Shown here in pieces: positions 9,873 to 40,333 of a stretch of 64,000 bases of DNA; within the stretch, counting starts at the first letter, position 1, and every line of letters starts with the position of its first letter. The DNA lies in the IMG/VR virus record IMGVR_UViG_3300027791_000009, positions 1 through 64,000 of that record, one strand, 5' to 3'. The notes under the pieces were generated by a model. It saw only the letters and a program-made list of their open reading frames with translations, was not told where the DNA came from and made no database searches. This stretch comes from a virus. A program made the position numbers and the translations under genes.

Positions 9873-10201
9873 TAAAACAATTAAAAGATAACTTGGCAAG
9901 TGTGGCAGCTTTAATCGCAGCCGTAGTTGCTATTGGTGGTGGATTCGTTAAATACGGAGAGTTGACTACTAAAATGAACGCAATGGAAGAAAGAAAAGGT
10001 GTTAACATTGCACCTCTACAAGAAACTATTAAATCATTACAAATTAAAATTACGGAATTAGAAGGTAAAATACCTGCTGATATTTCTGGTAGTGTACAAA
10101 AGAACAAGACAGCAATTAAAATAAACGAAAAAGAAGTCGAAGTCTTAAAACTACAGATACAAGAACTTAAATTAAAAGCAAAAAATCCGCTAGCGGGTTA
10201 A
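9869..10201 (+). CDS. Membrane-anchored coiled-coil protein
   Basis: 110 residues: a Gly/Ala-rich membrane helix at about 10-28 (LIAAVVAIGGGF) and a coiled coil to the end. ATGA overlap with the previous gene. Part of the same late envelope operon. Confidence 0.6.
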   Translation: MIKQLKDNLASVAALIAAVVAIGGGFVKYGELTTKMNAMEERKGVNIAPLQETIKSLQIKITELEGKIPADISGSVQKNKTAIKINEKEVEVLKLQIQELKLKAKNPLAG

Positions 10202-10224
10202 TTGACTTTGGGAGAATAATCGCT

Positions 10225-10710
10225 ATGTCTACAACAACAGGTCACGGTAACGGTGAAACTAGGGCAACTCTAGCTTCACTATCAAAAGAAGTGTACGATA
10301 ACCGTACAAGTATAGAGGTGTTGAAGTCCGAACTTCAGCAAAGTAATCAAGTGCATAAAAGACTAGACACAGCGATTGACAAGTTAACTGGTATCAGTAG
10401 TGGTATTAAGCAGATGTTAGCCGTACACGAAGAGAAATTAAATCAAGCAGAAAAACTAGATGAAATTATCTTTTCAAAGTTAAAAGACAGACAAGAAGAT
10501 ACTGAAAGTAGATATAGACAATTAAAAGATAATATAGATATGACTGAAAAGCGTATTATGAATGAAATACGAAGTATTAAGAACTCTCTAGGAGAAAAGG
10601 TAAATATGCTAGAGAAGTGGAAGTACTTAATTATTGGTGGTTCTATAGTAATCGGTTTTATTTTAGCAAGAAACTTCCCATTAGTCGTGGAGTTAATGAA
10701 AGTCACATAG
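10225..10710 (+). CDS. Coiled-coil protein with C-terminal membrane anchor
   Basis: 161 residues: long coiled coil (about 12-130) and a C-terminal helix (LIIGGSIVIGFILA). MLAVHEEKL near 64-72 is a segment I recall from similar proteins of T4-like marine phages. A helper of lysis or of the tail is possible but unproven. Confidence 0.55.
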   Translation: MSTTTGHGNGETRATLASLSKEVYDNRTSIEVLKSELQQSNQVHKRLDTAIDKLTGISSGIKQMLAVHEEKLNQAEKLDEIIFSKLKDRQEDTESRYRQLKDNIDMTEKRIMNEIRSIKNSLGEKVNMLEKWKYLIIGGSIVIGFILARNFPLVVELMKVT

Positions 10711-36530: not shown

Positions 36531-37490
36531 ATGGCAATATTACGAGGCGGGAAAAGAATAGGAGGTATGGATATCAGAATTGGTATTCCTAGAGATACTT
36601 CTATGAACAATATTAACCGAGACCCAAGGTTCAAACAAAAGGTAGGTGCAAATCCTGAAACTACAATGGGTAGATTTCAATCCTATGTAAATGAATCAGA
36701 AGGTTTTGCTCGTAAGGCTAGATACTATGTTGTCTTTGAACTACCAACAGGTGGTAAGATTGCAGGTGGTATGGACTTTGGTGGTGCAGTACCTGGTGGT
36801 GACGGTATGGTACAAGGTGGTGAGATACGAAGATACGCTAACGAAGCAAACTTGCAACGAAGAGTACAAGCGTTTGTATCATCGGTAAATATGCCTGGTA
36901 GAACAATGAAGACTAAAGCAATAAAACACAATGGTCCACCAAGACACATTGTTTACGACTATGAAATGGCTGATGTATCAATGACATTTTATACAGACAA
37001 ATATTTAAGAGAAAGAATATTCTTTGAATTGTGGCAGAAGACTGCCTTTTCAAATATAACTCACAACTATGCTTACTATGATGAGTATGTAGCACCGATT
37101 AATATTCTTCAACTAGGTGCAGACCCAGGAGCACAAGAACGAGACGGTTCAACTTATGGTGTCAGATTGTGGGAAGCGTATCCTGTTTCAGTAGGTGATG
37201 TAGAGTATGCTTCAGGTTCAAATGAAGTACAAACATTTACCGTTCAGTTTAAATATAGATACTGGTTAAACTTTGCATTAGACCAACAAAACAAGTTTCA
37301 GATTGGTCAGTCGCAGTTTAATAGTGCTGTTGTCAAAGAAGGTGAGAGTGGATTTTTAAGTAAACTACCACCTGAATTGAGAAGAGCAGGCGAAGGTGTG
37401 CTACAAAACTTGAAGAGGTCGTTTCCAATCGGTAAGATTACTGGTGGAAGAGTTATGCCTCCATTCAAATTTGGACCACTAAATATATAA
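36531..37490 (+). CDS. 54: Baseplate tail-tube initiator (gp54-like)
   Basis: 319 residues, equal to T4 gp54 (320). Tube-type beta pattern: ARYYVVFELPTG, RRVQAFVSSVNMPGRTM, VSMTFYTDKYLRERIFFELWQK and VQTFTVQFKYRYWLNF. The protein nucleates the tail tube on the baseplate. It precedes gp26 here, so the order differs from T4, where 48 and 54 are adjacent. RBS AAGGATAA. Confidence 0.75.
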   Translation: MAILRGGKRIGGMDIRIGIPRDTSMNNINRDPRFKQKVGANPETTMGRFQSYVNESEGFARKARYYVVFELPTGGKIAGGMDFGGAVPGGDGMVQGGEIRRYANEANLQRRVQAFVSSVNMPGRTMKTKAIKHNGPPRHIVYDYEMADVSMTFYTDKYLRERIFFELWQKTAFSNITHNYAYYDEYVAPINILQLGADPGAQERDGSTYGVRLWEAYPVSVGDVEYASGSNEVQTFTVQFKYRYWLNFALDQQNKFQIGQSQFNSAVVKEGESGFLSKLPPELRRAGEGVLQNLKRSFPIGKITGGRVMPPFKFGPLNI

Positions 37491-37515: not shown

Positions 37516-38250
37516 ATGGCTTTACCAAAAATTGAAGTCCCAACATATAAGATAACTCTACCTAGTAAAGACCAGGAAGTAGAGTATAGACCTTTTCTGG
37601 TCAAAGAAGAGAAGATATTGATGATGGCAATGGAAGAGCAGAATGACGCTCAAATGAAAGCTGCCGTTAGAGATTTAATTAACTCTTGTACTTTCGGAAA
37701 ATTAGAAGTAACCAAACTACCACTATTTGACATTGAGTATTTGTTTTTAAATATTCGTGCCAAGTCTGTAGGTGAGATTGCGTCTTTCAAAGTTTTCTGT
37801 CCTGAAGATAAGGTTACACTTATACCTGTTGAAGTAGACTTGACAAAAGTTGAGGTACAGGTTGATGACGACCACACAAATAAAATTGTATTAGACGAGA
37901 CAAGAAATCTTGGTATTAGTATGAACTATCCTAACATTGACACTATTCCATTGGGCGTAGATAATTCTATGAATACAGACTCAATCTTTAAAACGATTGT
38001 TGATTGTATAGATTATATCTATGAGGGGGAAGAGGTGCATAAAGCGAAAGATAGTACAAAGGCTGAACTAATAGATTTTTTCAATAATCTTAACACACAA
38101 CAATTTGAGTTAATTAGAAAATTCTTTGACACAATGCCGAAGTTAAGGCATGAGCTCAAGGTCGTAAATCCTAAAACCAAGAAAGAGAGTGTGGTTACAC
38201 TCCAAGGACTATCTGATTTTTTCGTATCTGCCTCTCCCACAACAACCTAG
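37516..38250 (+). CDS. 26: Baseplate hub / tail assembly chaperone (gp26-like)
   Basis: 244 residues. IEVPTYKITLPSKDQEVEYRPFLVKEEKILMMAMEEQN (about 5-42), DLINSCTFGKLEVTKLPLFDIEYLFLNIRAKSVGE (about 55-89) and FFNNLNTQQFELIRKFFDTMPKLRHE are the gp26 (T4_baseplate family) pattern. A slippery T TTT TTC near the 3' end suggests that some ribosomes shift into the next frame and make a longer protein. RBS AAGGAG. Confidence 0.85.
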   Translation: MALPKIEVPTYKITLPSKDQEVEYRPFLVKEEKILMMAMEEQNDAQMKAAVRDLINSCTFGKLEVTKLPLFDIEYLFLNIRAKSVGEIASFKVFCPEDKVTLIPVEVDLTKVEVQVDDDHTNKIVLDETRNLGISMNYPNIDTIPLGVDNSMNTDSIFKTIVDCIDYIYEGEEVHKAKDSTKAELIDFFNNLNTQQFELIRKFFDTMPKLRHELKVVNPKTKKESVVTLQGLSDFFVSASPTTT

Positions 38251-38254
38251 AGGC
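38217..38254 (+). promoter_or_regulatory. Programmed -1 frameshift signal
   Basis: T TTT TTC (38217-38223) in gp26 phase, 6-base spacer, then stem GCCTCT (38230-38235) with AGAGGC (38249-38254) and a 13-base loop. The zero-frame stop TAG (38248-38250) sits at the base of the 3' stem strand. Confidence 0.75.
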
Positions 38255-38414
38255 GTACTTTGAGACTAACTTTGCATTAATGCAACACCATAAGTATAGT
38301 CTATCAGAATTGGATTCTCTTATTCCTTGGGAAAAAGAGGTTTATGTATCTTTACTGGTTAAACACCTTAAAGATGAGAAAGAAAAAGCAAGACGGGATA
38401 AAATGAATAAATAA
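38223..38414 (+). CDS. 51: gp51-like extension of gp26, made by -1 frameshift
   Basis: The -1 frame stays open from the slip site for 63 residues to TAA at 38412-38414, giving a fusion of about 299 residues. Its core FALMQHHKYSLSELDSLIPW and EVYVSLLVKHLKDE is the short gp51-like tail protein that I recall following gp26 in marine T4-like phages. The only ATG, at 38280, has no RBS and would drop the conserved YFETNFAL lead-in. This is the layout of lambda G and GT. Confidence 0.7.
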   Translation, partial: RICLSHNNLEAYFETNFALMQHHKYSLSELDSLIPWEKEVYVSLLVKHLKDEKEKARRDKMNK

Positions 38415-38443: not shown

Positions 38444-38764
38444 ATGGCTGAAGAAATAAAAGAAGTTAAGGTTGCAGAACCTAAACAGAAAATACAAGTT
38501 GATTTAGAAGTTGATACTTCAATAAAAGACTTAGGTATCAATCCATATTCAAAGATAATACATATGGCAAGAGCAGTTGACGCTTGGAGAATATTCCCAA
38601 GATTGTTTTTGACCGTATATATTGTTTTACTATACAAATGTGTAATATGGTATATGAATTTACCAACACCTACTATGGAACAAAGTGGGTTAATCAGTAT
38701 CGTTGTTGGTGCTGGTGCAGCTTGGTTTGGTTTATATACTGGTTCAAGTAAAGGTAAAAATTAG
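38444..38764 (+). CDS. Two-helix membrane protein next to the tape measure gene
   Basis: 106 residues with acidic N-terminus, DAWRIFPRLFLTVYIVLLYKCVIWYM (helix 1) and LISIVVGAGAAWFGLYTG (helix 2). I recall the second motif from proteins beside tail genes in T4-like cyanophages. Size and layout would suit a holin, which is not proven. Confidence 0.6.
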   Translation: MAEEIKEVKVAEPKQKIQVDLEVDTSIKDLGINPYSKIIHMARAVDAWRIFPRLFLTVYIVLLYKCVIWYMNLPTPTMEQSGLISIVVGAGAAWFGLYTGSSKGKN

Positions 38765-40333
38765 ATGGCCGCAAGTACACTAACACAAGCCTCACAAGAC
38801 GAGATAGTAAGCATATTCAAAGCAATCTCTAGTAAAGTACAAGGTTCAGTTGAAGGACTTGTTAAGACTACTCAGCCCAAACTAAACAAATTAGTTGCAG
38901 ACACAATAGACGCATTTAAAGACAAACCTCAACAAGTTAATAAACAAATGAACTTGTTAGCAAATAGGATGCAAGAGTTAGGTATGTCTGTAGATGACTT
39001 AACACAAGGCATAGAAGATAAAGATTTAACTGCTGATATGAAATCTCTACAAGACGCATTGCGTAATAGAGAACAAAAAATTGTAAAGGCAGACACAGAA
39101 GCAGCTGAATTGCGTAAACAAGGTGTAGCCGCAGAAGTAAAGATGACACAAGCCGGTGCCAAGGTAGTTATACTATCACAAAAAGAATTATCTAAACGAA
39201 CTGAAACATTACAATCAGAGCAAAAGATTTTAATTGAGCGAGAACAAAAGAATTTAAAAGCAACAAAAGAACTTGATAAGTTAACTGGTAAAGAAAAAAC
39301 AGCACAAGCAAATCTTATTAAAGCAGAAACAAAAAAGATAGCAAAAGAACGAGAAAAGATAGAAGAAAAAGAAAAGGCCATTGGCGGTAACCCTAGTAAT
39401 AACTATGGTGGTCAAGGTGGTGATTTGATAGACCCACGAGGTATGTTTGCTGGTATATCAGATACCTTTATGGGTATCAAAGATAGTATCACAGGACCAT
39501 TCGTAGAACTTGGTGAAATAGGAAAGCGTATGGGTAAGTCATTTATGAACTTTGGTAAAGCAATGAAGACACCAATCAAGTCATTAAAACTACTTGGTGC
39601 AAGTCTTATGGTTGCAGTACTACCTATGTTGTTGTGGGCTGTAGGTATATTAGCATTGATTGCTATTATCGCAGTTGCAATATTTAAGTTTCATGCTATC
39701 AAAGACGCAATCATAGACGCATATAACTATCTAGGAGATGTATTTACTAAGTTTGGTGAATATCTAAAAGAGAAGTGGGATGCCTTAGTAGAGTATATAG
39801 GTGGACTAAAAGATTCAATAATGGAGAAGTGGGATTCGTTTACAGGTGCATTTGGTGAAATGGTTGATTATGTAAGTAACCTAGGAAGTAAAATATGGGA
39901 TAGTATATCTGAAGCGTTTAGTAGTGTTGGTGATTTCTTAATGGATGGTTTCAAAACTATAGTTAATGGTGTTATCAAACTGCTTAACAAGGTACCTTTT
40001 GTCGATATACCTCTATTAGGTACAAGTGGTGGTTCAGCAGGTATGGAAACTGGTCCATCAACTAAAGCAGAAATAGAACCAAGCACAGGCGTTTCAGATA
40101 AAATTGCTAGTTTCTTTGATAAACTTACAGGTGGTAATGATAATGAAGAAAATGCTAAAACGCTCATGTCAGAAGGTGATGTTAGCAACTCTAAACAATC
40201 TAACAATGTTGGTGTAAACCAAGACAACAGACAAATCGTAACCACAAACAACCAAGAATCAGTATTTGCTGGTAGAGGCAATCCTAATCCAGACCCACCA
40301 AGTATGTGGGAAAAGATGACAAGTCTATTTTAG
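38765..40333 (+). CDS. Tail tape measure candidate (gp29 position)
   Basis: 522 residues: helical, Lys/Gln/Glu-rich coiled coil (about 1-210), a Gly-rich turn, a strongly hydrophobic segment (about 278-306; LMVAVLPMLLWAVGILALIAIIAVAIF), amphipathic repeats with FGEYLKEKWDALVEYIGGLKD, and a low-complexity end. Tape measures show this mix, and T4 gp29 (590) occupies the same place between 26-51 and 48. Its length should set tail length (inference). Confidence 0.65.
   Translation: MAASTLTQASQDEIVSIFKAISSKVQGSVEGLVKTTQPKLNKLVADTIDAFKDKPQQVNKQMNLLANRMQELGMSVDDLTQGIEDKDLTADMKSLQDALRNREQKIVKADTEAAELRKQGVAAEVKMTQAGAKVVILSQKELSKRTETLQSEQKILIEREQKNLKATKELDKLTGKEKTAQANLIKAETKKIAKEREKIEEKEKAIGGNPSNNYGGQGGDLIDPRGMFAGISDTFMGIKDSITGPFVELGEIGKRMGKSFMNFGKAMKTPIKSLKLLGASLMVAVLPMLLWAVGILALIAIIAVAIFKFHAIKDAIIDAYNYLGDVFTKFGEYLKEKWDALVEYIGGLKDSIMEKWDSFTGAFGEMVDYVSNLGSKIWDSISEAFSSVGDFLMDGFKTIVNGVIKLLNKVPFVDIPLLGTSGGSAGMETGPSTKAEIEPSTGVSDKIASFFDKLTGGNDNEENAKTLMSEGDVSNSKQSNNVGVNQDNRQIVTTNNQESVFAGRGNPNPDPPSMWEKMTSLF

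What the first reader, a model, noticed from the sequence alone, without database searches (positions are those of the whole stretch)
38215..38414. Probable programmed -1 frameshift making a gp26-gp51 fusion
The sequence shows a slippery T TTT TTC in the gp26 phase, a 6-base spacer, a perfect 6-bp stem (GCCTCT/AGAGGC) that contains the zero-frame stop on its 3' side, and a -1 frame that stays open for 63 codons with protein-like content (FALMQHHKYSLSELDSLIPW). The only ATG in that frame (38280) has no RBS. Tail assembly chaperones G/GT of lambda and many long-tailed phages use this trick. I do not know of it as a described feature of the T4 gp26-gp51 pair.
Basis: partly seen in the sequence, partly recalled or inferred. 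Interest (0 to 1): 0.82.

Follow-up and report, generated by a model that had tools for sequence, protein, structure and literature searches.

The report
Frameshifted T4-like phage tail chaperone
In this marine T4-like phage, and in dozens of diverse relatives, the ribosome almost certainly slips back one base near the end of gene 26 to make a longer version of a tail-building helper protein, a trick already known from other long-tailed phages and already noted for T4-like ones.

Summary
Near the 3' end of gp26 lies T_TTT_TTC (38217-38223), followed by a 6-nt spacer and a 6-bp stem. The -1 frame is open for 63 further codons. A -1 frame TGA sits directly before the slip site and the zero-frame stop is 24 nt after it, so the shift must occur in between. 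All 80 IMG/VR relatives and 17 of 21 phage records examined (cyanophages, pelagiphage Mosig, Aeh1, Vibrio, Rhizobium, Sinorhizobium and Desulfovibrio phages) keep the heptamer, the phase and the -1 reading frame. No non-redundant locus has a start codon with a Shine-Dalgarno (SD) sequence near the junction. The conceptual fusion is collinear with T4 gp51, a full-length gene in T4; T4 gp26 is the short form and has lost the slip site. The pair is therefore the tail assembly chaperone (TAC), short and long forms. Papers citing Vladimirov et al. 2022 (not readable here) say T4-like TACs, poly-T slip sites and separate short and fused genes were already described. Verdict: real, well supported, a new member of a known kind; the three-part signal is the new detail. 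No wet-lab data.

The parts
37516..38250 (+). gp26 / TAC short form (zero frame, 244 aa)
   Evidence: PF12322 E=4.5e-65, phrog_150 E=3.6e-71; the only PF12322 copy in the 119,869-bp record
38204..38208 (+). SD-like AAGGA, 8 nt upstream of the slip site (probable stimulator)
   Evidence: Mean anti-SD duplex energy peaks here across 52 non-redundant loci (-4.6 against background 0.1); stronger than all 300 synonymous-codon nulls
38214..38216 (+). -1 frame TGA directly 5' of the slip site (upstream limit of the shift)
38217..38223 (+). Slippery heptamer T_TTT_TTC
   Evidence: Kept in 80 of 80 IMG/VR relatives and 17 of 21 phage records
38230..38254 (+). Stem-loop GCCTCT / AGAGGC, 13-nt loop (probable stimulator)
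   Evidence: Downstream 40 nt folds more stably than synonymous nulls (mean -6.5 against -3.4, 0 of 100); closing pair G-C becomes C-G in Bellamy
38248..38250 (+). Zero-frame stop TAG of gp26
38223..38414 (+). -1 frame gp51-like C-terminal domain (63 codons plus stop); fusion 299 aa
   Evidence: phrog_634 E=7.8e-27; the conceptual fusion matches phrog_150 5-282/282 at E=5.7e-80
36531..37490 (+). Tail tube protein upstream (context)
   Evidence: phrog_45 E=2.4e-34
38765..40333 (+). Tape-measure-like protein downstream (context)
   Evidence: Weak PHROG tape measure hits, best 9.5e-9

Best explanation
The locus encodes the tail assembly chaperone of a T4-like phage in two forms. Most ribosomes end at the gp26 stop and make the short form (TAC-N, 244 aa). 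A minority, with tRNA-Phe in the P and A sites on TTT TTC, slip back one base to TTT TTT, probably helped by an upstream SD-like element and a downstream hairpin. They read on for 63 codons and make a 299-aa long form (TAC-NC, gp26-gp51). By analogy with lambda G/GT, both forms would coat the tape measure protein and the extra domain would recruit tail tube subunits. Shown by sequence: slip site, phase, limits of the shift, conservation of the -1 protein, absence of another start signal, structure in excess of nulls. Inferred: that slipping occurs, its rate, and the chaperone function.
For: The -1 frame is open across the stop and conserved in all 80 relatives at 51-100% identity. The heptamer is invariant in phase. 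The window's -1 ORF is bounded by TGA directly 5' of the slip. 0 of 52 loci have a start codon plus SD within 45 nt of the slip, and the Nitratidesulfovibrio phage's -1 ORF has no start codon at all. The fusion spans phrog_150 end to end and aligns along its length with T4 gp51. T4 gp51 itself hits phrog_150 at 13-280/282 and phrog_634. The hairpin and SD-like element beat synonymous nulls. There is no second PF12322 copy in the genome record. Tail tube lies upstream and a tape measure candidate downstream. Several records (P-RSM1, ACG-2014d, S-WAM2, Aeh1) have no gp51 annotated although the -1 ORF is present.
Against: No proteomic or reporter data. The exact stem is weak or absent in part of the family: pair 7-31 fails in about half of the loci. 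The SD-like element partly reflects a conserved Gly codon (synonymous null mean -3.79 against -4.67 observed). The gp26 model finds no solved chaperone structure. The genome record may be incomplete.
Confidence: 0.92

Rival explanations
1. gp51 is a separate small protein, started inside the overlap by translational coupling or reinitiation after the gp26 stop.
For: Public records annotate gp51 as its own CDS, e.g. S-PM2, Bellamy, and Mosig from the internal ATG. Ackermannviridae and some Vibrio phages have a TAATG overlap.
Against: No conserved start codon. Only 10 of 52 loci have an ATG within 45 nt of the slip, and none has start plus SD. The ATG used in Mosig lies inside the conserved domain. 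One phage has no start codon in the frame. Protein conservation begins at the slip site.
Confidence: 0.04
2. The T run causes transcriptional slippage, so that a fraction of mRNAs is already in the -1 phase.
For: The site is a run of six T, seven in some relatives.
Against: The run is short for polymerase slippage (my knowledge). The A-site codon is TTC in 45 of 52, which shortens the run although TTT is the commoner Phe codon in these genes. A structured 3' element and an SD-like 5' element fit ribosomal slipping better.
Confidence: 0.03
3. Sequencing or assembly error, or a decaying pseudogene.
For: A frameshift in a metagenomic record always raises this possibility.
Against: Same arrangement in 80 separate contigs and 17 phage records, including isolates.
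Confidence: 0.005

Closest known systems
Lambda gpG/gpGT tail assembly chaperone frameshift (Xu, Hendrix and Duda 2004; review PMC5009743)
   Same: Short ORF between tail tube and tape measure genes, -1 slip at its 3' end, C-terminal extension without its own start
   Different: Different protein family; slip T_TTT_TTC; SD-like element and hairpin apparent here
T4-like phage TACs (Vladimirov, Gautam and Davidson 2022; known here only through PMC10885494 and PMC12846349)
   Same: Same kind of phage and protein; poly-T slip sites are credited to T4-like TAC-N genes
   Different: I could not see which phages it covers, or whether pelagiphages or the SD/hairpin are described. T4 itself uses two separate genes
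T4 gp26 and gp51
   Same: Homologues of the short form and of the fusion respectively
   Different: Divergent separate genes; slip site lost (GAG TTC TTT GAG)
E. coli dnaX -1 frameshift signal
   Same: SD-like element about 10 nt upstream, slippery heptamer, downstream hairpin (my knowledge)
   Different: Heptamer U_UUU_UUC instead of A_AAA_AAG; a phage tail gene, not a polymerase subunit

Membership tests
[quoted passage not shown]
   80/80 IMG/VR relatives, 17/21 phage records
Phage tail assembly chaperone made by -1 programmed frameshift | Overlapping -1 ORF, conserved from the slip onward, without its own start signal | tested here: met
Phage tail assembly chaperone made by -1 programmed frameshift | Position between tail tube and tape measure genes | tested here: met
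   Tail tube upstream E=2.4e-34; tape measure candidate downstream, weak (9.5e-9), with one small gene between
Phage tail assembly chaperone made by -1 programmed frameshift | Both forms made in a fixed ratio and needed for tail assembly | not testable with these tools
   Needs reporter, proteomics and genetics
Phage tail assembly chaperone made by -1 programmed frameshift | Chaperone fold | tested here: inconclusive
   gp26 model pLDDT 82 matches T4-like baseplate hub assembly proteins (BFVD, 2e-19) but no solved structure
T4 gp26/gp51 family (phrog_150 / phrog_634, PF12322) | Sequence homology of the short form and the fusion | tested here: met
dnaX-like three-part -1 signal | SD-like stimulator, slip, hairpin at fitting distances | tested here: met
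   presence only, effect not tested; hairpin not universal

The most novel reading that the evidence does not exclude
Across T4-like phages one ancestral three-part signal (SD-like element, U_UUU_UUY, hairpin) sets the short-to-long TAC ratio. The coliphage T4 lineage abandoned it by duplicating the gene into short (gp26) and fused (gp51) copies and losing the slip site, so T4's two 'baseplate hub' genes are split descendants of one frameshifted gene.
Probability: 0.5. Interest if true: 0.45.

Novelty: new member of a known kind. Interest (0 to 1): 0.35.

Why it matters
It adds weight to reassigning T4's 'hub assembly' proteins gp26/gp51 as tail assembly chaperones. It shows that 'gp51 baseplate hub assembly catalyst' entries in marine T4-like genomes are mostly not independent genes but fragments of a frameshift product, sometimes missed altogether. 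It also offers a compact recoding signal conserved in ocean phages, ready for reporter and proteomic tests.

Tried and rejected
Chance slip site: a second in-phase heptamer with an open -1 frame (10180) served as a control; it is not conserved and its downstream gene has an RBS. One shared stem for the whole family: rejected, because the 7-31 register holds mainly in window-type loci (71% of cells paired overall, 21-50% when slid) and others form unrelated hairpins (S-PM2, S-SSM7, S-WAM2). Separate gp51 gene: rejected. A second full-length copy as in T4: not found in the record. Solved-structure support for a chaperone fold: none. Vladimirov et al. 2022 is not held, so it was judged through citing papers.

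Full report
WHAT IS THERE. The window is a 64-kb part of a 119,869-bp virus record with T4-like tail genes: a tail tube protein (36531-37490), gp26 (37516-38250), a small protein, a tape-measure-like protein (38765-40333) and further T4-like baseplate genes such as gp53. Near the end of gp26 the codons are GAT TTT TTC GTA, so T_TTT_TTC lies at 38217-38223 in phase. The -1 frame yields RICLSHNNLEAYFETNFALMQHHKYSLSELDSLIPWEKEVYVSLLVKHLKDEKEKARRDKMNK and stops at 38414. The -1 frame has TGA at 38214-38216, directly before the slip site, so the join can only lie between there and the zero-frame stop.

CONSERVATION. In all 80 IMG/VR relatives fetched with gp26 (51-100% identity) the -1 frame is open across the stop and the protein pattern FFRIxLSHxxLExYxxTNFxLMQHHKYSLxExExMxPWERxIY begins at the slip (a few contigs end inside it). 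The heptamer is TTTTTTC in 73 and TTTTTTT in 8 of 81 sequences, window included. The zero-frame stop lies 0, 3 or 24 nt behind it. Of 21 phage records examined, 17 keep it: Kyanoviridae cyanophages, pelagiphage Mosig, Aeromonas phage Aeh1, Vibrio D486 and QD01, Sinorhizobium phiM7, Rhizobium RHph_I1_9 (TTTTTTG) and a Nitratidesulfovibrio phage. Four lack it: three Ackermannviridae and Aeromonas TSW001. Among 52 non-redundant motif-bearing loci the codon before always ends in T, although the amino acid varies (Asp, Ser, Asn), and the P-site codon is always TTT. The 17 named phages in that set were chosen as motif-bearing; the IMG/VR loci were not.

STIMULATORS. An 8-nt anti-SD duplex scan peaks 13-17 nt upstream of the heptamer start (mean -4.6 kcal/mol against 0.1 background). 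Randomising synonymous codons gives -3.79 on average and never reaches the observed mean in 300 trials, so a conserved glycine explains part of it, not all. The 40 nt starting 5 nt after the heptamer fold at -6.5 on average against -3.4 for synonymous versions (0 of 100). A control stretch further on shows a smaller excess (-3.3 against -2.4). The window-type stem pairs in 71% of cells against 21-50% when slid; its closing G-C is C-G in cyanophage Bellamy, and S-PM2, S-SSM7 and S-WAM2 have long hairpins of unrelated sequence. About a third of the loci show no clear excess structure.

NO SEPARATE START. None of the 52 loci has a start codon with SD in the first 45 nt of the -1 frame, and the Nitratidesulfovibrio phage has no start codon in the frame at all. 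Depositors either begin gp51 at whatever ATG occurs (Mosig: 44 aa, inside the conserved domain) or omit it.

WHAT IT IS. The conceptual 299-aa fusion matches phrog_150 over its full length (5-282/282, E=5.7e-80). T4 gp51 (249 aa) also matches phrog_150 over its full length and phrog_634, while T4 gp26 (208 aa) matches only the short part. The fusion aligns with gp51 through the junction, and T4 gp26 and gp51 are themselves weakly similar (BLASTP 2e-6 for a single comparison). In T4 the two genes are divergent, and gene 26 reads GAG TTC TTT GAG where the slip would be. So T4 gp26 corresponds to the short and T4 gp51 to the long chaperone, made by two genes, whereas the marine relatives appear to make both from one gene by frameshifting. 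The window's genome record has a single copy, as expected if it relies on the frameshift. That these proteins act as tape-measure chaperones is inferred from gene order, from the analogy with lambda G/GT and from the published identification below.

LITERATURE. The identification of TACs in T4-like phages is published (Vladimirov, Gautam and Davidson 2022, Virology 566:9), which was not readable here. PMC10885494 says, citing it, that some T4-like phages carry a short gene and a separate fused gene instead of frameshifting. PMC12846349 says, citing it, that poly-T slippery sequences are known in TAC-N genes of T4-like phages. I therefore file this as a new member of a known kind. The three-part signal and its spread are, as far as the held library shows, not described, but this rests on nine text searches of open-access papers.

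LIMITS. Everything is sequence inference. Slip rate, products and chaperone activity are untested. Related sequences inflate the statistics. A structure model of gp26 (pLDDT 82) matches T4-like hub assembly proteins but no solved structure.

Noticed in passing
window 10174-10225: A second in-phase slippery heptamer (A_AAA_AAT, 10180) whose -1 frame runs into ORF 10225-10710; not conserved in relatives, and that gene has an RBS (GGGAGAATAATCGCTATG). Judged chance.
   Followed up: yes
L101, L102, L104 (Ackermannviridae Vibrio YC, Dickeya Ds9CZ, Klebsiella T765): These gp26 homologues lack the heptamer but keep an open -1 ORF, with a TAATG overlap in YC and Dickeya; they may make the C-terminal domain by reinitiation or a different slip.
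   Followed up: partly
L089, L091, L095, L098: Public records ACG-2014d, P-RSM1, S-WAM2 and Aeh1 have no gp51 annotated although the -1 ORF is present; pelagiphage Mosig (L083) has it truncated to 44 aa.
   Followed up: yes
window 38444-38764: A 106-aa protein with a probable membrane span (by eye; phrog_10198, unknown function) sits between the chaperone and the tape-measure-like gene.
   Followed up: no
L081 5803-6429 (-) and 6480-7229 (+): T4 genes 26 and 51 look like diverged paralogues on opposite strands; gene 26 lacks the slip site (GAG TTC TTT GAG).
   Followed up: yes
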